Below are positions 46,600-58,229 of a DNA stretch of 64,000 nt, piece after piece (positions within the stretch are counted from its first letter, which is position 1; each line of letters begins with the position of its first letter). The stretch is from positions 1 through 64,000 of the forward strand of contig CAIRZD010000169.1 of NCBI GenBank assembly GCA_903882965.1, written 5' to 3'. The stretch comes from an uncultured Bacteroidota bacterium (GTDB taxonomy: Bacteria; Bacteroidota; Bacteroidia; Chitinophagales; Chitinophagaceae). Under the pieces are notes generated by a model, which was not told the origin of the DNA, ran no database searches, and worked only from the letters and a program-made list of their open reading frames with translations. A program made the translations under genes and the position numbers.

Positions 46600-47430
46600 T
46601 TAAAAAGGTTCCTTAATCGCACTTTGTGAATTCGGATTAAAGCCTGGAAGCTTAGATGACAAGGTTACACTAACTGCACTTTGCGTATTAACATTAAAAT
46701 CCTTGGTTAACCCCGGTGAAAATTCCACATTTATCATATTGTTTTGGAGATTGGCAACAATTATACCGTACAAGTTTTGGTTAGAATTGCTTGTAATGAA
46801 AATGGTACCGTTTGTTGCCTGCGCATTTTCAAGCATTGCAGCATCTATACCATTTGTTATCCCGTTCATATCTAATAAGATCGCAGCCGCATAAGCCGGT
46901 TGATTTATAACCACATTACTTGTCCATACCGTATTCAGCACTATGGGTTCGTTGATTATCACCTGTACAGGAATTGGCTGCGCCGGAACTGCGATATTGC
47001 CTGTAGGGGGTACGCCAAAAACGCCACTCAGAGATAACGAATTTGTTCCGTTCAGCGGATTTAACCCTACAGCTAGTGATACACCTAAGTAATTATTAAA
47101 AGGCACATTTACCGTACCCAAAACCGGGTTGCTGAATAGATCCCATGTTCCCGATCCTTTCCCTTCAAATGTTTCTTTTGATACCATATTGCCTTCCAGA
47201 TGAGAACCGTAAAAAAACAGGCCACTGCTTGTAATAGATCCCTTATCCCATTTTATCAAAGTTCCGGCAGGTGGCAGTAGTGTCCTTAATTGGTAAGTTA
47301 CATTAGCCGAACCATTTGTTGCAGCAGCGGTACCGGTTAAGCCACTTTCAAGGCTGTTTTCCTTATTACATCCCGTAATTAAGGCCGCACTTATTATGCC
47401 TGCTGCTATCATATATTTTATCGTTTTCAT
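46600..47430 (-). CDS. Putative lipoprotein, paralogue of 50576..51334
   Basis: Lipobox-like AALITGCNKENS; shares IAVPxxPIPVQVIIxxPxxLNTxWxSN and NLYxIIxxNLQxNxxxVxF with the downstream gene. Confidence 0.75.
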   Translation of the reverse strand: MKTIKYMIAAGIISAALITGCNKENSLESGLTGTAAATNGSANVTYQLRTLLPPAGTLIKWDKGSITSSGLFFYGSHLEGNMVSKETFEGKGSGTWDLFSNPVLGTVNVPFNNYLGVSLAVGLNPLNGTNSLSLSGVFGVPPTGNIAVPAQPIPVQVIINEPIVLNTVWTSNVVINQPAYAAAILLDMNGITNGIDAAMLENAQATNGTIFITSNSNQNLYGIIVANLQNNMINVEFSPGLTKDFNVNTQSAVSVTLSSKLPGFNPNSQSAIKEPF

Positions 47431-47563
47431 GATCTGTCTTTTTAAAGGTTAACTTATTTCTGAATTATTCATCTTCCGCATTAGCTTTGCTGATAATGAT
47501 TAAAAATTGATGCCTTCCTGTGTCAACGGATTGCTAAAATTGTATTGCTTTTCTCAGAAAAAA

Positions 47564-50500
47564 ATGACCATGACTGCTCGTAAAAAATATTTCTTTCTCT
47601 TGTGCCTCGCACTAATATCAACAGGCACATTTGTATATGCTCAAAGCACTGATCCATCATTATTTAGCTTCCTTCGCTGGCGCATGATCGGCCCCTATCG
47701 GGGTGGCCGCACAGTGGGTTCGTCTGGCGATTTACAACACCCTAATATCTTTTATATCGGGGTCAACAACGGTGGTGTATGGAAAACCACCGATTTCGGC
47801 CGCACATGGCAACCCATTTTTGATGATCAACCTACTGGGTCTATAGGTGATGTAGCAGTGGCACCATCAAACCCAAACACAATTTATGTAGCAAGTGGGG
47901 AAGGATTGCAACGTCCTGATCTTTCGGTGGGTAATGGAATGTACAAATCACTTGATGCCGGCAAAACATGGCAGCACATCGGTTTATCAGAAGGCCTGCA
48001 AATAGGCGGCATTTCCGTTGACCCGCAAAATGAGAACCGGGTATTTGCCGCAGTCCTCGGCCATCCATACGGTCCCAATAAAGAGCGCGGTGTTTATCGT
48101 ACCACAGATGGTGGAAACAACTGGAAACAGGTTTTATACATTGATGAAAACACAGGTGCAGTACAGGTTACCATTGATCCAACCGATCCCAATATTGTTT
48201 ATGCCGACATGTTTGCGGGCAGATTAGCACCCTGGGAAAATGGCATGTGGGCAGGCCCGAATAGCGGTTTATATAAATCCACAGATGGCGGCAACACCTG
48301 GAAACAACTGACCACCGGCTTGCCAACTCCTGCCGATGGTCTCGACCGTATCGGCTTTTGTATAGCACCTTCTGATCACAACCGGCTCTATGCAGTAGTA
48401 AGTGCAAAAGAAAGATCAGGTGGTTTTTATCGCAGCAATGATGGCGGCCAATCATGGACAAGACTAAGCGGTGATATGCGCCTTTGGGATCGTGGCACCG
48501 ACTTTGCCGAAGTGAAAGTAGATCCTAAAAATGCAGATATCGTTTATGACGCAAATGTAGTAGTATGGAAATCTGTTGATGGCGGCACCACATGGAGCGG
48601 CTGGAAGGGCGCACCCGGTGGCGACGACTACCACAGGCTATGGATCAACCCGCAAAACCCCGATATTATTTTATTGTCCAGCGATCAGGGTTCAGGCATT
48701 ACGGTCAATGGTGGCACCACATGGAGCTCCTGGTACAACCAGCCCACTGCGCAACTCTATCACGTAAGTGCCGACAATGCTTTCCCCTACAATGTATACA
48801 GCGGCCAGCAGGAAAGTGGATCCGTTTGCATCTCTTCCCGCGGCAATGATGGTGCTATCACTTTCCGCGACTGGCATCCGGTATCTGCCTCCGAATATGG
48901 CTATGTCGTAGCAGATCCGCTCAACCCCAATATTGTTTATGGTGGAAACATAAGCAGGTATGATAAACGCACAGGCCAGGTACAGGATATTACACCTGCC
49001 GCCAAACACCGCCACCTGCGCACTGCCCCCGTTGTTTTTTCTCCCATCGATAATAAGACCCTCTTTTTTGCAGGCAATCTTTTATTCAAAACACATGATG
49101 GCGGTAATTCCTGGCAAACCATCAGCCCCGATCTTACACGCACCACTTATGATGTCGATCCATGCATCGGTATATACCGCACAGACTCAATGGGCCGCAT
49201 GCCACAACGCGGCGTTATCTATACTATTGCATTATCCCCACTCGATAGCAATATTATATGGGCGGGCACTGACGATGGCCTCATACACGTAACTCATAAT
49301 AGCGGAAAAAGCTGGGAAAATGTCACCCCACCTTCACTAAATTCATGGAGCAAAATATCCCTCATGGATGCAAGCCATACCGATAAAAACACAGCCTATG
49401 CCGCCGTCAACCGTATCCGGCTTGATGATCTGCACCCGCATATTTTTCGTACCCATGATGGCGGAAAAACATGGCAGGAAATTGTAAATGGCCTGCCAAA
49501 CGATCCCATCAATGTGGTGAAAGAAGACCCCATCTGTAAAGGCCTTTTATTTGCCGGTTCGGAGCGTGCGGTCTATGTGTCTTTTGATGACGGCGAAAAC
49601 TGGCAACCCTTAAGAATGAACATGCCCGCCACTTCCATACGTGACCTCGTGATAAAGGATAATGACTTGGTAGTAGCTACGCATGGCCGTTCTTTCTGGA
49701 TCATGGATGATATTACTTCACTCCGGCAAATTGCTACAGAAAATGCACAACAAAACGTAATGCTCTACAAGCCCGCAAATGCATACCGCGTCCGCTGGAA
49801 TATGTACCCCGATACCCCAATGCCTGCAGACGAGCCGGTTGGCGAAAACCCACCCGATGGCGCAATCATAGAATACTATCTCAAAGAAAAAACTACAGAA
49901 ATAGCACTCGATATCACTAATGAAAAAGGAGAAGTTATCCGTCACTATAGTTCAAAAGATACATTATACACCATTCCAAATGTAAATATCCCTTTGTACT
50001 GGATACGCCCGCAGCAAATACCTTCCGCCGCCGCAGGTGCCCACCGTTTCTTATGGGATATGCATTACCAGCCGTTAAATGAACCTCCCGCTTACCCTAT
50101 ATCTGCGGTGTACCAGAATACTGCCCCCGAACCAACCTCACCATCGGTTATGCCCGGTAAGTATACCGCTAAATTATCCGTCAATGGAAAAGTATATTCA
50201 GAAACCTTTTCAGTACTATTGGACCCCCGTGTTAAAACAAGCCACCACGACCTGCAATTACAGCACGATCTTTCTTATCAATGTTATACAGACATTATAA
50301 CTTCTAAGCAACTCAGGTCTGCGATAAAAAATGGTCCGCAGGAAGCTCAGAAAAAACAACTTGAAGACATTTCCACAATTGAAAGAACTTTAAAAACAGT
50401 ACTTAATAAATTACAACAGGCTGATGAAACCCCGTTGCCCGAATGGATAACCACAATAAATGATGCGCACAGTAAACTGGAGAAAATGCATCTTAAATAA
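47564..50500 (+). CDS. Sortilin/VPS10-like BNR-repeat beta-propeller protein (secreted)
   Basis: Likely start MTMTARKKYFFLLCLALISTGTFVYAQ (track start 47507); repeated T.DGG.TW motifs (TTDGGNNWKQ, STDGGNTWKQ, SNDGGQSWTR, THDGGKTWQE). Confidence 0.92.
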   Translation: MTMTARKKYFFLLCLALISTGTFVYAQSTDPSLFSFLRWRMIGPYRGGRTVGSSGDLQHPNIFYIGVNNGGVWKTTDFGRTWQPIFDDQPTGSIGDVAVAPSNPNTIYVASGEGLQRPDLSVGNGMYKSLDAGKTWQHIGLSEGLQIGGISVDPQNENRVFAAVLGHPYGPNKERGVYRTTDGGNNWKQVLYIDENTGAVQVTIDPTDPNIVYADMFAGRLAPWENGMWAGPNSGLYKSTDGGNTWKQLTTGLPTPADGLDRIGFCIAPSDHNRLYAVVSAKERSGGFYRSNDGGQSWTRLSGDMRLWDRGTDFAEVKVDPKNADIVYDANVVVWKSVDGGTTWSGWKGAPGGDDYHRLWINPQNPDIILLSSDQGSGITVNGGTTWSSWYNQPTAQLYHVSADNAFPYNVYSGQQESGSVCISSRGNDGAITFRDWHPVSASEYGYVVADPLNPNIVYGGNISRYDKRTGQVQDITPAAKHRHLRTAPVVFSPIDNKTLFFAGNLLFKTHDGGNSWQTISPDLTRTTYDVDPCIGIYRTDSMGRMPQRGVIYTIALSPLDSNIIWAGTDDGLIHVTHNSGKSWENVTPPSLNSWSKISLMDASHTDKNTAYAAVNRIRLDDLHPHIFRTHDGGKTWQEIVNGLPNDPINVVKEDPICKGLLFAGSERAVYVSFDDGENWQPLRMNMPATSIRDLVIKDNDLVVATHGRSFWIMDDITSLRQIATENAQQNVMLYKPANAYRVRWNMYPDTPMPADEPVGENPPDGAIIEYYLKEKTTEIALDITNEKGEVIRHYSSKDTLYTIPNVNIPLYWIRPQQIPSAAAGAHRFLWDMHYQPLNEPPAYPISAVYQNTAPEPTSPSVMPGKYTAKLSVNGKVYSETFSVLLDPRVKTSHHDLQLQHDLSYQCYTDIITSKQLRSAIKNGPQEAQKKQLEDISTIERTLKTVLNKLQQADETPLPEWITTINDAHSKLEKMHLK

Positions 50501-50525
50501 TAATGCTACCATAAAATTTATACTC

Positions 50526-50564
50526 AAAAAAAAACCGCAGGGCAACAGCCCTGCGGTTTTTTTT
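50526..50564. terminator. Bidirectional rho-independent terminator
   Basis: AAAAAAAAACCGCAGGGCAACAGCCCTGCGGTTTTTTTT between convergent genes. Confidence 0.95.
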
Positions 50565-50575
50565 ACCCACTTGCA

Positions 50576-51334
50576 CTATAAAGCAGCTGAATTAGAGGTA
50601 ACCATATTTTGCGGCACAAATTGCACCGGCATGAGGTTACCCTGAAGGTTATTGAGTATTATCTGGTAAAGGTTTGCGTTAGAGGTACCCGAAATTATTA
50701 TAGTGCCACCTGTTCTTGCTGCACCACTCAGCATACCGGCATTTATGCCATTTATCAGTTGGTCTGTGCTCAGTATAATTGATGCTTCCCAGTAATTCAT
50801 GGTATACGTTGTTATATTACTTACATAAGCCGTATTCAATTGTGCAGGCCCTGTAATGATCACCTGCACGGGTACATTGGGAACCGCTATAGCTCCACTC
50901 ATTGGTATGTATGTCCCGTTAAGCAGCAATGAATTATTTGTGCGCGTTGTGCCTAAACTTATTGTAAATGATCCATTATTACAGGTCAGCTGCGGCACAT
51001 ATACATTACCCAGTACTTGTGTCTCAGCCAGTGCTGTTACTGCTCCTATTTTTGTACCATAACTCATGCGGGTCATTTTCTCACCATTATTATAGTCCGC
51101 ATTAAAAACAATTTCGTTCGCATTTACATACCCGTTATTCCACTGTATAAGCGATCCACCATTCGAGGGTTGTATAGATAATTTATAATTGATGGCCGCA
51201 GGGTATGCAGCGCTGCCGTTGGTATAAATAACTTCGCTACTCACACTTTGAGGATTATTATTGTTGTCTTTTTTACAGCCTGCAAATATTGCAACGCTCA
51301 AAAGCAACCCGGTTAAAATATTTATCTGTTTCAT
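50576..51334 (-). CDS. Putative lipoprotein, paralogue of 46600..47430
   Basis: Lipobox-like VAIFAGCKKDNN; NGGSLIQWNNGYVNANEIVF, IAVPNVPVQVIITGPAQLNTAYVSN, NLYQIILNNLQGNLMPVQF. Confidence 0.75.
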   Translation of the reverse strand: MKQINILTGLLLSVAIFAGCKKDNNNNPQSVSSEVIYTNGSAAYPAAINYKLSIQPSNGGSLIQWNNGYVNANEIVFNADYNNGEKMTRMSYGTKIGAVTALAETQVLGNVYVPQLTCNNGSFTISLGTTRTNNSLLLNGTYIPMSGAIAVPNVPVQVIITGPAQLNTAYVSNITTYTMNYWEASIILSTDQLINGINAGMLSGAARTGGTIIISGTSNANLYQIILNNLQGNLMPVQFVPQNMVTSNSAAL

Positions 51335-51561
51335 AAAAATAGTTTTTAGTCTCTACTCACCATTAGGGTACAAAACCCGTTCCATCAGGTTTATCCGGAA
51401 ATGTTATTAATTAGTCTGGGCGCTGATTTTGCTACTATTTGGAAAAAACAACTTTTATCTGAATATATATTATTCATAAATTTATTTGTTAATGATTGAT
51501 TAATGCATGGATATTTATTTAGCTTTGCTAACTGTTTGTTAATGAAAACAAAAACTAATCT

Positions 51562-51987
51562 ATGAGAAAAATATTTTTACTACTTATATTCCTGTTTACT
51601 GCATCCGCCTCTTTTGCCCAGTCCAACCCCAGGCAGTATCTCGCTAACGAGATCAATGAACTACTGTTCTCAAATGTTGATTCAAACTTAAACGAGATAC
51701 TCAATATAGATAAGCAAGGCACATTGAACATTATGTATAAAACCATTGATGAAAATGTAGATTTTAATATCCTCGACATTTCAAATATCGAACTGAAAGA
51801 CCCGGAAGATAAAAGTCCATACCTCACACTTGTTTTTCATTGCCATCATTGTATGCACCTTACTTCTCCCTGGGACGACAGACGGGCGAAATTTGAAAAC
51901 AGCAACTTCACCCTGCCTGTTAAGTATAAGGCACTGGGGATGAAACTCATCTCCAAAATTGATAAACTAAAAGGGCAGATCAGGTAA
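51562..51987 (+). CDS. Secreted hypothetical protein with CxxC motif; tandem paralogue 1
   Basis: Signal peptide ...FTASASFAQ; FNILDISNIELKDPEDKSPYLTLVFHCHHCMHLTSP. Confidence 0.75.
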   Translation: MRKIFLLLIFLFTASASFAQSNPRQYLANEINELLFSNVDSNLNEILNIDKQGTLNIMYKTIDENVDFNILDISNIELKDPEDKSPYLTLVFHCHHCMHLTSPWDDRRAKFENSNFTLPVKYKALGMKLISKIDKLKGQIR

Positions 51988-52083
51988 GTGAATACCTGGA
52001 TAACCACCCGGTAAAAACAATTCCAAATCATAGCTAAGATATTTGGTTTAATTTCGCTAACAAGCCAATGATTGCCAAAGCCT

Positions 52084-52515
52084 ATGAAAAAAATAGTTAT
52101 CCTTACGGCATTTCTCTTCTGCTCAGCTGCTTCTTTTTGCCAAACCAATAATGTCAGGCAAAACCTTGCAAAACAAATAAATGCCCTGTTTTTGTCTTGC
52201 GTTGATTCCACCCTCAATGAGGTCATTAATATAGATAAGCTCGGCACCATCAATATCATGTATAAAGACAGGAACGAGAGTATTGATTTTAATATCCTTG
52301 ATGTTTCTGACATCGAATTGTTAGATGAAAAAAACGAAACACCACCTGTACTCAATATATTTTTTAAGTGCAAACACTGCATACATTTCACCACCCCCTA
52401 CCCCAATCGGAAATCAGGTTTTGATAACAGCACACTCACACTGCCAGTAATGTATAAATCACTTGCCCTCAAACTCGTCACCAAGCTCGAAGAACTACAA
52501 AAAGAAAATAGGTAA
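52084..52515 (+). CDS. Secreted hypothetical protein with CxxC motif; tandem paralogue 2
   Basis: Likely start MKKIVILTAFLFCSAASFCQ (track start 52072); FNILDVSDIELLDEKNETPPVLNIFFKCKHCIHFTTP. Confidence 0.75.
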   Translation: MKKIVILTAFLFCSAASFCQTNNVRQNLAKQINALFLSCVDSTLNEVINIDKLGTINIMYKDRNESIDFNILDVSDIELLDEKNETPPVLNIFFKCKHCIHFTTPYPNRKSGFDNSTLTLPVMYKSLALKLVTKLEELQKENR

Positions 52516-52746
52516 CTGCTAATTTTTTTTTGCTTTCGGCTATTTGCAGCCATTTGTATCTGTGACTCCGATCCCAAGGTTATATTCCAGAGACACAATT
52601 CTACAAAAAAGGATTTCTAATCGAAGTTGGCGGAAATGCATTGATCCGGTGGACAATTGAGCATATCAATAATATATGCTTACATTTATTTTTTCATTGC
52701 ATTTAATTGATATTAATCAGGTAAAAAACCGTTTAAGACAAAACCT

Positions 52747-54279
52747 ATGATGAACTTCAAAAACCCCCAAACCCCGGGAGTATATATCCAGGAGTTAAAT
52801 GCCTTCCCTAATTCAATAGTCGAGGTTGCAACCGCCATACCTGCATTTATAGGATATACACAGCGCGCTGATTATAACGGACAATCTCTGAAAGGAACTG
52901 CCGTTAAAGTCACTTCACTGAATGATTTTACAACTTATTTTGGCGGTGGCCTCGGTTCAAAACTGCAATTTACGTTAAGTGCTGCTTCCTCTGATTTGCC
53001 GAATGTACATGATCCATTAAAACCAATTTTAACACTGAATAAAATACAATACCAACTTGCAATTTCTTCCACCACTTATTACCTATACAACAGTATCCGT
53101 CTGTTTTACCAAAATGGCGGTGGCACATGCTATATTATTCCTCTAGGTCTGTATAGTGGCGGTGCAATTGCTCTTGCGGATTTCCAAAGCGGCCTCTCCA
53201 CACTTGATAACGAGCAAGATCCTACTATCATAGTTTTCCCGGATGGTCTGTCGTTAAGCAAAAGCGATTATGCAAGTCTTATGCAAGCGGCCATAAAAAA
53301 TGCATCGTCTGCTCAAAATAAAGTAGCCATATTTGATGTATGGGGTGGCGCTGTTGCCGATCCTAATCTTTGCCAGCCTATTATAGATAATTTCAGGAAC
53401 GATGTAGGTGCAGATAATCTCAATTACGGAGCTGCTTATTTCCCCTGGCTGCAAACAAGCATAATTCAGAATGGCGAAGTAACATTCGCAAATTTCGGAA
53501 CACTGACAAATTATCTTGAAACTGACTTCCCTGATACAATAACTACTGACCTGATTGCACCTGCGAATGTGGCGGTTGCAGCCGACCCTTATATGACGGA
53601 TACAAAGACACAGCTTGCTGTTACATTGGCTCATAATGCAATGATGTCTGCAAGCCGTAATTATAAAAATCTTATTCTATGGGCATCAAATATTGCAAAT
53701 GTTTTGCCTGCATCACCGGCAATGGCAGGGATATATACATACGTGGATAGCATGTTGGGCGTATGGAAAGCGCCTGCAAATGTCAGCTTGACGGCAGTAG
53801 TCGCACCCACTATTAACCTAAACGATACACAGCAGGGAGACTTCAATGTAGATGCTGTATCGGGCAAATCTATAAATGTGATCAGGTCTTTTACCGGTCA
53901 GGGTGTATTAGTATGGGGCGCAAGAACGCTCGATGGCAATAGTCAGGACTGGCGCTACATCAATGTTCGCCGAACCATGATCATGATAGAGCAATCAGTA
54001 AAGCTCGCGGCAAGAGCATATGTATTTGAACCAAATACAGCCAATACCTGGGCTTCAGTAAAAAGTATGATCGGTAATTTTCTCAATGGCCTCTGGAAAC
54101 AAGGAGCTTTCGCAGGCGCGAAACCAGAAGACGCGTATAGCATCGCGGTAGGCTTGGGTAGTACAATGACAGGAGATGATATATTGAACGGAAAAATGAA
54201 TATTACAGTACTCGTCGCTGTTTCTCATCCCGCTGAATTTATTATGATCACTTTCCAACAGCAAATGCAAAAATCATAG
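52747..54279 (+). CDS. Contractile tail/injection-system sheath protein
   Basis: KNPQTPGVYIQELNAFPNSIVEVATAIPAFIGYT; YINVRRTMIMIEQSVKLAARAYVFEPNTANTWASVKSMIGNFLNGLWKQGAFAGAKPEDAYSI, the canonical sheath N- and C-terminal motifs. Confidence 0.95.
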   Translation: MMNFKNPQTPGVYIQELNAFPNSIVEVATAIPAFIGYTQRADYNGQSLKGTAVKVTSLNDFTTYFGGGLGSKLQFTLSAASSDLPNVHDPLKPILTLNKIQYQLAISSTTYYLYNSIRLFYQNGGGTCYIIPLGLYSGGAIALADFQSGLSTLDNEQDPTIIVFPDGLSLSKSDYASLMQAAIKNASSAQNKVAIFDVWGGAVADPNLCQPIIDNFRNDVGADNLNYGAAYFPWLQTSIIQNGEVTFANFGTLTNYLETDFPDTITTDLIAPANVAVAADPYMTDTKTQLAVTLAHNAMMSASRNYKNLILWASNIANVLPASPAMAGIYTYVDSMLGVWKAPANVSLTAVVAPTINLNDTQQGDFNVDAVSGKSINVIRSFTGQGVLVWGARTLDGNSQDWRYINVRRTMIMIEQSVKLAARAYVFEPNTANTWASVKSMIGNFLNGLWKQGAFAGAKPEDAYSIAVGLGSTMTGDDILNGKMNITVLVAVSHPAEFIMITFQQQMQKS

Positions 54280-54317
54280 TTATTATTGATCACAGTTTTA
54301 TAAAATAACCCACTGGT

Positions 54318-54334
54318 CCAAGGGTCTCCCTTGG
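54318..54334. repeat. Perfect hairpin CCAAGGG-TCT-CCCTTGG
   Basis: 7-bp perfect stem, 3-nt loop. Confidence 0.85.
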
Positions 54335-54346
54335 TCCCCAAATTCC

Positions 54347-54363
54347 GCAAGCATCCTGCTTGC
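54347..54363. repeat. Perfect hairpin GCAAGCA-TCC-TGCTTGC
   Basis: 7-bp perfect stem, 3-nt loop. Confidence 0.85.
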
Positions 54364-54498
54364 CACTAACTACATCGCGCAGTAAACGCTAAAAAGGTAT
54401 ATACACTTCCCCTCCATTACCCCCTCATCCCGCTAACTTTATTCCTTAAATACAATAAATGCAAAATCAGCCATACTACATCCCCAACGCTCATTCGA

Positions 54499-54557
54499 CC
54501 TCACCCTCTCTACAGCCTGCCCTGAGCGAAGCCGAAGGGGAGAGGGAAGGGGTGAGG
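54499..54557. repeat. Nested imperfect inverted repeat containing CCCTGAGCGAAGCCGAAGGG
   Basis: CCTCACCCTCTC...GAGAGGGAAGGGGTGAGG outer arms; inner 54520-54539 resembles the CCCTGAGCGAAG(T/C)CGAAGGG intergenic repeat seen across many bacteria. Confidence 0.65.
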
Positions 54558-54739
54558 CCCTTATACATTTACACAATCACAATTAATAAAAAAAACATTT
54601 TAATATCCACATAATATCGACACCAGATTTTTTAAACAAACAATATATGAAGAAAAACAACCACCATAAATGCTACGCAGCTCAAAATATATTCCCAAGC
54701 GAAGTCCCTTTAGGGATTTAGGGTTCTTAACTTTGCCCC

Positions 54740-56662
54740 ATGGCATACAAATCGCTGCGCGCATTTATAGATGCGCTCGAACAGGCAGGTGAATTAGTAA
54801 GGATAAAAACTTTCGTCGATCCCGTACTCGAAATTGCAGAAATAACCGACCGCATTTCAAAAACCCCCGACAGAAATAAAGCGCTCCTTTTCGAGAATAC
54901 CGGCACAGATTTTCCCTTGCTAATTAACTCCATGGGCAGTGAGCGCCGCATGTGCATAGCCCTTGGTGTCAACGCGCTTGATGATGTTACCCGCGATATA
55001 GAAGACCTCTTCAAAAAACTCTCCGCACCCAAAAACGGTATGCTCGAAAAGCTGGCCATGCTCCCGCAACTCAGCAAATTCGCCTCATGGATGCCCAAAG
55101 TGATCGGTGGCCGTGGTGCATGCCAGGAAGTGGTCATGGAAAAACCCAACCTCGATTTGCTGCCCATCCTCAAGTGCTGGCCCGAAGATGGTGGCCGCTT
55201 CATCACACTCCCTGCCATACACACCAAAGACCCCAACAATGGCATCCGCAATATCGGCATGTACCGCATGCAGGTATTCGATCCCACTATGACCGGTATG
55301 CACTGGCACAAACATAAAGTCTCTGCACGCCATTTCAATGAATATAAAAAGCTCGGCAAGCGCATGCCCGTAGCCGTAGCCCTCGGTGGCGACCCGGTTT
55401 ACACATACGCTGCCACAGCCCCACTCCCCGAAAATGTGGATGAGTATATGCTCGCAGGCTTCCTCCGCAAAAAGAAAGTAGAAATGGTGCGCTGCATCAC
55501 CCAGCCCGACCTCGAAGTACCCGCTGATGCCGATTTCATTATCGAAGGCTACGTTGATCCGGGCGAAGATCTTATATGGGAGGGCCCCTTCGGCGATCAC
55601 ACCGGCTACTACTCACTCCCTGATTTTTATCCCCGGTTTCATGTCACTGCCATTACGCACCGTAAGGATGCCGTATACCCCGCCACAATTGTAGGCATAC
55701 CCCCGCAGGAAGATGCATGGCTCGGCAAAGCCACAGAGCGCATATTCCTCACACCTATCAAGATGACCATGGTACCCGAGATCACAGACATGAATATGCC
55801 GGTTGAAGGAGTTTTTCATAATCTCGTTATCACTACCATCAATAAAGAATACGCCGGCCAGGGCCAGAAGGTGATGAATGCCATGTGGGGCGCCGGCCAA
55901 ATGATGTTCAATAAAATTCTTGTGCTCACTGATGGCCCTGCTGCCAGCGGCATAAAAATAGACGACTATAAAGCGCTTACCCATTACGTACTTAATAATG
56001 TAAACCCCGTCACCGATATTTATTTCAGCCAGGGTCCTATGGACGTACTTGACCATAGCTGCTCAAAACTCGGCTTCGGTGGCAAAATGTGCATCGATGG
56101 CACCAGAAAAATGGAAGAAGAAATAACTACACCCTTGCTTCCGTTCAAACTCCATACTTCCTTCTCAAAAAATAATATATTGTCCGGTTTCCACGAAATT
56201 ACCGGTATCAACGAAAAACTTGCCGGTGAGTGGGATATGCCCATATTAATGGTTGCGGTCAAAAAAACAAGGCCAAATCAAATAATAGAATTGCATGAAA
56301 AACTTGCCTCCCAACCCGGCCTTGACGGAATAAAAATTATATTATATGTCGAACACACTATAAATACTGATGATATAGCAGACGTATTATGGCGTTTTTG
56401 CAATAACCTCGACCCAAAAAGAGACCATTTTTATGGCGGGGAGCAAAAAAATATATTAGGCCTCGATGGTACACGCAAAACAAAAAAATTCGATAACTTT
56501 GATAGGCCGTGGCCCAATATCATAGTCGCTGATGACAAAACAATAGCAGCTGTTGATAACAAATGGAATAGCTTAGGATTGGGTGAAAAAATTATTTCTC
56601 CATCTTTTCGGTATAAAACCCAACTATATAGGGGGGGTGCGACTGTCTTAGATAGTGAGTAA
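54740..56662 (+). CDS. UbiD family decarboxylase (possibly menaquinone-pathway)
   Basis: MAYKSLRAFIDALEQAGELVRIKTFVDPVLEIAEITDRISKTP; IWEGPFGDHTGYYSLPDFYPRFHVTAITHRKDAVYPATIVGIPPQED. Confidence 0.93.
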   Translation: MAYKSLRAFIDALEQAGELVRIKTFVDPVLEIAEITDRISKTPDRNKALLFENTGTDFPLLINSMGSERRMCIALGVNALDDVTRDIEDLFKKLSAPKNGMLEKLAMLPQLSKFASWMPKVIGGRGACQEVVMEKPNLDLLPILKCWPEDGGRFITLPAIHTKDPNNGIRNIGMYRMQVFDPTMTGMHWHKHKVSARHFNEYKKLGKRMPVAVALGGDPVYTYAATAPLPENVDEYMLAGFLRKKKVEMVRCITQPDLEVPADADFIIEGYVDPGEDLIWEGPFGDHTGYYSLPDFYPRFHVTAITHRKDAVYPATIVGIPPQEDAWLGKATERIFLTPIKMTMVPEITDMNMPVEGVFHNLVITTINKEYAGQGQKVMNAMWGAGQMMFNKILVLTDGPAASGIKIDDYKALTHYVLNNVNPVTDIYFSQGPMDVLDHSCSKLGFGGKMCIDGTRKMEEEITTPLLPFKLHTSFSKNNILSGFHEITGINEKLAGEWDMPILMVAVKKTRPNQIIELHEKLASQPGLDGIKIILYVEHTINTDDIADVLWRFCNNLDPKRDHFYGGEQKNILGLDGTRKTKKFDNFDRPWPNIIVADDKTIAAVDNKWNSLGLGEKIISPSFRYKTQLYRGGATVLDSE

Positions 56663-57635: not shown

Positions 57636-57980
57636 TCACAGTGACAGAATAACGCCACTTATCAGCGTCATTATTTCGTCCAGCTTTGTCGACAATTTTT
57701 TATCAAAACCATGCCCTTCTGAATGTTCGCACAAATAAAACCAGTACCATGTATCATGCGCTGCTTTATCTGCTTCTTTCATCCTGTAAATAAAGTCTTT
57801 TTCAGCGTCAGCACTGCGTGCACCTATAATGTGCGCGCCTATACTCGTGCCACTGATTAAAACCTGGTTTGCCAATACATGCTTCTGCTTACCTTCCAGT
57901 TCCTCCACATACTTAATGACCATCAACGAAAACTCTATAGATTGTTGAATAATCGCATCTTTTGAATGGTCTTTTTTCAT
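57636..57980 (-). CDS. Four-helix bundle protein (23S rRNA intervening-sequence-protein family)
   Basis: Likely start MKKDHSKDAIIQQSIEFSLMVIKYVEEL (track start 58028); NQVLISGTSIGAHIIGARSADAEKDFIYRMKEADKAAHDTWYWFYL. Confidence 0.88.
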   Translation of the reverse strand: MKKDHSKDAIIQQSIEFSLMVIKYVEELEGKQKHVLANQVLISGTSIGAHIIGARSADAEKDFIYRMKEADKAAHDTWYWFYLCEHSEGHGFDKKLSTKLDEIMTLISGVILSL

Positions 57981-58229
57981 GTTTCGGTTTTCTTTTATGG
58001 ATACCAAATATAACCACATTATTAACATGTGGCGCGTTTTCTAACCCATTTCACATAAATCAATAATAAATGGTTCAAAAAGTGAAATCGGCCGGCATAA
58101 AGTAATCAAGCTATATCGCATATAATTATTGCAAACTTGTTTAACATTTTGCTGAAAACTTACTCATTATTTGTTGGTAAATTCGCGTTTGGATATATTC
58201 AGTGTACGTTTGTTATTTAAGTGTGTTTC

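What the first reader, a model, noticed from the sequence alone, without database searches (positions are those of the whole stretch)
52747..54279. Orphan contractile-tail/injection-system sheath gene
The protein carries clear sheath signatures at both ends. The flanks are two small secreted CxxC proteins and a UbiD decarboxylase; no tube, baseplate, spike, LysM adaptor, AAA+ ATPase or terminase ORF is nearby. In phages and eCIS the sheath is normally clustered with the tube gene. Either the system is dispersed, this is a domesticated remnant, or the sheath has an independent role.
Basis: partly seen in the sequence, partly recalled or inferred. Interest (0 to 1): 0.62.

Follow-up and report, generated by a model that had tools for sequence, protein, structure and literature searches.

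The report
Lone injection-machine sheath gene
This bacterium carries an intact gene for the spring-like outer sleeve of a phage-tail-like injection machine but, as far as its genome is assembled, none of the main other parts tested; the same has happened repeatedly in related bacteria, where the lone gene is kept intact by selection, so it may do a job on its own.

Summary
[quoted passage not shown] It is the only sheath in the host assembly (4.8-Mb MAG, 95.3% complete). Profile searches found no tube, spike, gp25 or J-type baseplate gene there, although the same profiles found them in other genomes. The gene sits in a 4.2-kb block absent from the closest relative, where the two flanking genes lie 103 bp apart, so a recent gain is likely. 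It is not a one-off: 18 distinct sheaths of this family lie without a neighbouring tube gene, spread over the tree, and 12 other genomes with such sheaths, several of them cultured isolates, lack the baseplate genes tested. Orphans are not decaying: they evolve no faster than sheaths of complete machines, the window copy keeps 105 of 110 conserved positions, and two orphan pairs show purifying selection (dN/dS 0.27, 0.29). Best reading: a sheath retained as a stand-alone, polymer-forming protein. Rivals: a young relic, or part of a dispersed machine; some relatives keep single scattered parts, including a lone tube gene with a conserved membrane anchor. Cellular function is not shown.

The parts
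52747..54279 (+). eCIS-type sheath protein, 510 aa, intact
50501..54739 (.). Block of 4239 bp between two conserved genes; in the closest relative (G163, L149) the same two genes are 103 bp apart. Exact edges could not be aligned
51562..51987 (+). Small secreted-looking protein with one CxxC, paralogue of the next; inside the block, not linked to sheaths elsewhere
52084..52515 (+). Second CxxC paralogue, inside the block
50576..51334 (-). Lipoprotein-like protein, 35% identical paralogue of 46600-47430; inside the block
47507..50500 (+). Left conserved flank: Sortilin/BNR repeat protein (81% identical in G163)
54740..56662 (+). Right conserved flank: UbiD decarboxylase (92.5% identical in G163; found in 33 of 35 genus genomes)

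Best explanation
The gene encodes a complete eCIS-type sheath subunit that reached this genome without its machine, in a small block inserted upstream of ubiD, and is retained as a stand-alone protein. SHOWN: it is full-length, has sheath homology from end to end, is the only sheath, four other core parts are absent from the assembly, an empty site exists in the nearest relative, and orphan sheaths elsewhere are under purifying selection. INFERRED: because the arms by which neighbouring sheath subunits interlock are intact, the protein should polymerise by itself into sheath-like tubes in the cytoplasm, as phage sheath proteins do when made alone; with no tube or baseplate it cannot fire as a syringe. 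UNKNOWN: what such a polymer does for the cell; a structural or stress role inside the cell is a guess.
For: Tube, spike, gp25 and baseplate-J profiles find nothing in the genome but find parts in other genomes in the same searches. Orphan sheaths recur, needing at least seven separate changes of state on the tree, in 12 other genomes without gp25 and baseplate J. Orphans evolve at the same rate as cluster-borne sheaths (p = 0.87); the window copy keeps 105 of 110 conserved positions, all in both terminal arms. Orphan pairs at shared sites have dN/dS 0.27 and 0.29, p = 3e-10 and 9e-8 against neutrality. The nearest relative of the gene, in another species of the genus, is also an orphan. Phage sheath proteins self-assemble alone (PMC6357053).
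Against: No expression, structure or phenotype data. Selection on the window copy itself cannot be measured: its only close relative is 57% identical with saturated dS. Orphan pairs have higher dN/dS than cluster-borne pairs (0.03-0.18), so constraint may be partly relaxed. Only 2 of 35 genomes of the genus carry the gene.
Confidence: 0.42

Rival explanations
1. Young relic: a fragment of an eCIS locus was transferred or left behind, the sheath gene happens to be the intact piece, and it is on its way out with no function in this cell.
For: Gene absent from nearly all of the genus and inserted in a block missing in the sister species; no partner genes; higher dN/dS in orphan pairs than in cluster-borne pairs. 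A recent arrival would still look fully conserved.
Against: Two orphan pairs were kept under purifying selection while orphaned. All orphans in the tree are full-length, and internal stops are rare in the family (one match). Decay would be expected to leave more broken sheaths.
Confidence: 0.3
2. Part of a dispersed, still working machine: sheath here, other parts encoded singly elsewhere, some too diverged for the profiles or missing from the assembly.
For: Scattered single parts are real in relatives: a lone spike+PAAR pair in G151 (same genus) and in Pedobacter foliorum, lone tubes in two Ferruginibacter genomes and G081, a tape-measure end beside the Roseivirga sheath, a CIS ATPase beside the G297 sheath.
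Against: gp25 and baseplate J are absent from all twelve other genomes with lone sheaths and no complete machine, and this genome also lacks tube and spike. In PVC, losing single baseplate, tube or sheath-initiator genes stops particle formation (reported in PMC12210884).
Confidence: 0.2
3. Assembly gap: an ordinary complete cluster exists but was not assembled or binned, and this is merely an extra sheath copy.
For: 508 contigs, 95.3% complete. Some relatives (G098, G189) have both a complete cluster and an orphan sheath.
Against: The gene lies inside a 71-kb contig whose flanking genes are syntenic with the sister species at up to 96% identity. The same orphan state occurs in better assemblies, for example G081 (8 contigs, 100% complete).
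Confidence: 0.06

Closest known systems
AlgoCIS (Algoriphagus machipongonensis), sheath Alg2 (7adz)
   Same: Single-sheath eCIS of Bacteroidota; the C-terminal sheath core aligns strongly and it is the best Foldseek hit
   Different: AlgoCIS has a full cluster of 18 proteins (PMC8894135); here no tube, spike or baseplate gene was found. Alg2 is longer (692 aa) with extra domains
Thylakoid-anchored CIS of Anabaena, sheath All3325 (7b5h)
   Same: Similar length (484 aa) and second-best sequence match in the PDB
   Different: Works with tube All3324 and a baseplate; none found here
Bacteroidales/Bacteroidetes injection systems (BIS), e.g. Parabacteroides distasonis
   Same: A P. distasonis plasmid encodes a 44% identical full-length sheath
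   Different: There it lies between DUF4255 and two tube genes
Phage polysheaths (e.g. gp053 of phage FV3, PMC6357053)
   Same: Sheath protein without other machine parts; a model for what the lone protein may do
   Different: A laboratory over-expression product, not a natural lone gene; sequence only distantly related
Orphan hcp/vgrG/PAAR islands of type VI secretion (PMC13098142)
   Same: Single parts of a contractile machine encoded away from it
   Different: Those parts can load onto a complete machine in the same cell; a sheath is not exported cargo, and here no machine was found to load onto

Membership tests
eCIS sheath protein family | Sheath core and both terminal regions homologous to solved eCIS sheaths over full length | tested here: met
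   9r9h_T aligned over residues 8-510; eCIS sheaths rank first; 105 of 110 conserved positions kept
eCIS (complete system) | Tube (gp19-like) gene in the genome | tested here: not met
   Alignment A1: none in this genome, found in 11 of 20 genomes searched
eCIS (complete system) | Spike / VgrG-like gene in the genome | tested here: not met
   Alignment A2: none here, found in 10 of 20
eCIS (complete system) | Baseplate gp25 and J-type genes in the genome | tested here: not met
   Alignments A3 and A4: none here, found in 8 and 7 of 20
eCIS (complete system) | Cap/terminator DUF4255 (Pvc16_N) | tested here: inconclusive
   PF14065 found nothing, but no control genome rang either
eCIS (complete system) | CIS AAA+ ATPase, tape measure and LysM adaptor in the genome | not tested
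   No genome searches left. Adaptor, tape-measure and ATPase queries gave no match in the window or its contig
Myophage tail / prophage | Full-length relatives in phages, or phage genes around it | tested here: not met
   No phage record covers 80% of the protein; no relatives in viral contigs; no phage genes in the neighbourhood
Type VI secretion sheath (TssB/TssC) | Match to TssB/TssC families | tested here: not met
   Pfam, PHROGs and PDB sequence searches return only the eCIS/phage-type sheath
Polysheath-forming protein | Self-assembly without tube or baseplate | not testable with these tools
   Known for a phage sheath (PMC6357053); needs expression and EM

The most novel reading that the evidence does not exclude
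Bacteroidota contain a baseplate-free use of the contractile sheath: a stand-alone sheath polymer, in some lineages paired with a separately encoded, membrane-anchored tube protein, that is selected for without ever forming an injection machine.
Probability: 0.2. Interest if true: 0.82.

Novelty: new variant of a known kind. Interest (0 to 1): 0.52.

Why it matters
Two large CIS surveys keep only loci with many core genes together (at least ten in PMC8213781; candidates lacking baseplate, tube or initiator genes are dropped in PMC12210884), so lone sheaths fall outside them. If lone sheaths are selected for, the sheath has a role apart from firing a needle, which is testable by expressing one protein and looking in the microscope. 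If they are relics, they document how eCIS loci break up. The membrane-anchored lone tube in relatives is a concrete new lead either way.

Tried and rejected
Phage or prophage origin: rejected. Functional link with the CxxC proteins or UbiD: not supported, since they do not recur next to other sheaths and the UbiD site exists without them. Foreign or misbinned contig: unlikely. A promoter scan gave no more sites than shuffles, and the Bacteroidota -33/-7 pattern has no match near the gene. Repeats at the block edges: only short, chance-like ones. tRNA genes near orphans: none complete beside a sheath; one apparent 3' half in G151, read by eye. A search for the paper behind structure 9r9h found nothing relevant. 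Pfam PF06841 and PF14065 in the own genome gave no hits, but their controls did not ring, so profiles built from loci fetched here were used instead. The AlphaFold model is only moderate (pLDDT 64) and was used only to confirm the fold class.

Full report
WHAT IS THERE. Window 52747-54279 (+) is one open frame of 510 codons. It is a sheath protein over its whole length. Pfam and PHROGs match sheath families, and the best solved structure (9r9h_T) aligns from residue 8 to the last residue at E 2.7e-141, ahead of the Anabaena thylakoid CIS, AlgoCIS, AFP and PVC sheaths. Phage sheaths match only the C-terminal part, at 23-34% identity in the listed hits, and no contig of the viral collection encodes a relative. 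An AlphaFold model (pLDDT 64, modest) retrieves only CIS sheaths among its best 26 Foldseek hits. So it belongs to the eCIS lineage, not to phages or type VI systems.

IS IT REALLY ALONE? The window is part of a 71,137-base contig of a 4.8-Mb MAG with 508 contigs, 95.3% complete. No other CIS profile hits the contig. The whole assembly has no second sheath. With alignments built from complete clusters of relatives, tube, spike, gp25 and J-type baseplate are all absent from this genome, while the same four searches hit 11, 10, 8 and 7 of the 20 genomes searched. One unassembled cluster cannot be excluded (roughly a 5% chance, judged from completeness). ATPase, tape measure and LysM adaptor were not searched genome-wide, and DUF4255 is inconclusive.

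HOW IT GOT THERE. In G163, whose UbiD is 92.5% identical, the two genes that flank the block in the window (a Sortilin/BNR gene and ubiD) lie 103 bp apart. In the window 4239 bp lie between them, with the sheath, two CxxC paralogues and a lipoprotein-like paralogue. ubiD is present in 33 of 35 genus genomes, whereas a full-length sheath of this family is in only two. The second, in G151 (57% identical), is also an orphan, at another place. There it lies about 100 bp downstream of a sequence that reads as the 3' half of a tRNA-Lys gene, beside prophage-like genes (the tRNA was identified by eye, not by ARAGORN). Gain with a mobile block is the simpler reading; loss in all the others is possible.

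A RECURRENT PATTERN. Among relatives most sheaths sit in classical clusters. But 19 sheaths in the tree (18 distinct sequences, the window's included) have no tube gene beside them, and the tree needs at least seven separate changes of state. For five of these (L162, L163, L164, L168, L170) only about 1.5 kb on each side was seen. Partner searches sort the genomes with lone sheaths into groups. Sheath with none of the four parts: the window's genome, Roseivirga seohaensis, Roseovarius marisflavi, Brumimicrobium mesophilum and two MAGs; Herbaspirillum autotrophicum has only a weak, partial spike-like hit. Sheath plus a tube encoded elsewhere but no spike or baseplate: Ferruginibacter paludis, a second Ferruginibacter, and G081. 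Sheath with an adjacent tube only: G088. Sheath plus a distant spike+PAAR pair: G151 and Pedobacter foliorum. A complete machine elsewhere as well: G098 and G189. Other single parts occur near such sheaths: a short tape-measure end in Roseivirga, the CIS ATPase in G297 (46% identical to the Aureibacter CIS ATPase) and near the P. foliorum sheath.

IS IT DECAYING? Orphan sheaths are as deep in the tree as cluster-borne ones (medians 1.07 and 1.06 changes per site, p = 0.87). The window protein keeps 105 of 110 positions that are at least 95% conserved in cluster-borne sheaths (95.5%), within the leave-one-out range of those sheaths themselves (94-100%). Its five departures are P52A, L183I, L366F, L455F and V466I; none falls in the first 45 or last 35 residues. 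Two pairs of orphans, each in the same genomic place in two species and so orphaned before they diverged, have dN/dS 0.27 and 0.29, with a synonymous excess at p = 3e-10 and 9e-8. This is weaker constraint than in cluster-borne pairs (0.03-0.18) but clearly purifying. For the window gene itself only G151 is available, and dS is saturated (dN/dS about 0.12), so selection on this copy is not proven. Internal stops are rare among family matches (one).

MECHANISM. In AlgoCIS, sheath subunits interlock by a conserved 'handshake' and hold the tube by an attachment helix in domain I (PMC8894135). Phage sheath proteins made alone can build long polysheaths (PMC6357053). The window protein keeps both terminal regions, so self-assembly into tubes is the most likely molecular behaviour (inferred). 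Without tube and baseplate it cannot act as an injector. Whether the polymer has a job, or the gene is a young relic, is not settled; I put stand-alone retention at 0.42, relic at 0.30, dispersed machine at 0.20 and an assembly gap at 0.06.

AN UNEXPECTED SIDE FINDING. The lone tube genes of the two Ferruginibacter genomes and of G081 carry an N-terminal membrane-type segment that the cluster-borne tubes examined lack. Between the two Ferruginibacter species the first 27 codons have pS 0.74 but pN 0.09 (p = 7e-6), so the segment is coding and selected. A membrane-anchored tube plus a separately encoded sheath without a baseplate would be an unusual arrangement. No tube gene of any kind was found in the window's genome.

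COMPARISON AND NOVELTY. By sequence the protein is an ordinary member of the eCIS sheath family; the machine-level definition of an eCIS was tested and is not met. I found no description of lone eCIS sheaths in the papers searched. Two surveys filter for many core genes (PMC8213781, PMC12210884). Hence 'new variant of a known kind'. The host is a member of Bacteroidota, probably Chitinophagales (inference: the family loci include one identical to a named Chitinophagales MAG, L049/L068).

Noticed in passing
L108 8832-9338 (F. paludis), L109 8928-9434, L107 9102-9644: Lone CIS tube genes with an N-terminal membrane-type segment that is conserved at protein level, in genomes with a lone sheath and no baseplate or spike.
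   Followed up: partly
L036 9300-9854, L070 8681-9205, L037 12070-12606: Short (174-184 aa) genes matching only the C-terminal part of the CIS tape-measure family (PF19268), next to sheath genes; in Roseivirga directly upstream of the orphan sheath.
   Followed up: partly
L162 3115-4470; L052 13262-14608: CIS-type AAA+ ATPase directly downstream of an orphan sheath (G297) and near one in Pedobacter foliorum.
   Followed up: partly
L111 8615-10054; L106 5198-7420: Stand-alone spike+PAAR gene pairs far from the lone sheath; the P. foliorum spike is shortened to 376 aa.
   Followed up: partly
L084 10412-10462: Apparent 3' half of a tRNA-Lys gene about 100 bp upstream of the G151 orphan sheath, beside prophage-like genes: looks like an integration scar.
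   Followed up: no
window 50501-54739 and matching sites in L149, L152, L153, L154, L156: The interval upstream of ubiD is a variable site in the genus: empty in one species, filled with genes of about 370-380 aa in others, and with the sheath block here.
   Followed up: partly
window 57636-58028 (-): 23S rRNA-intervening-sequence (four-helix) protein standing outside any rRNA gene.
   Followed up: no
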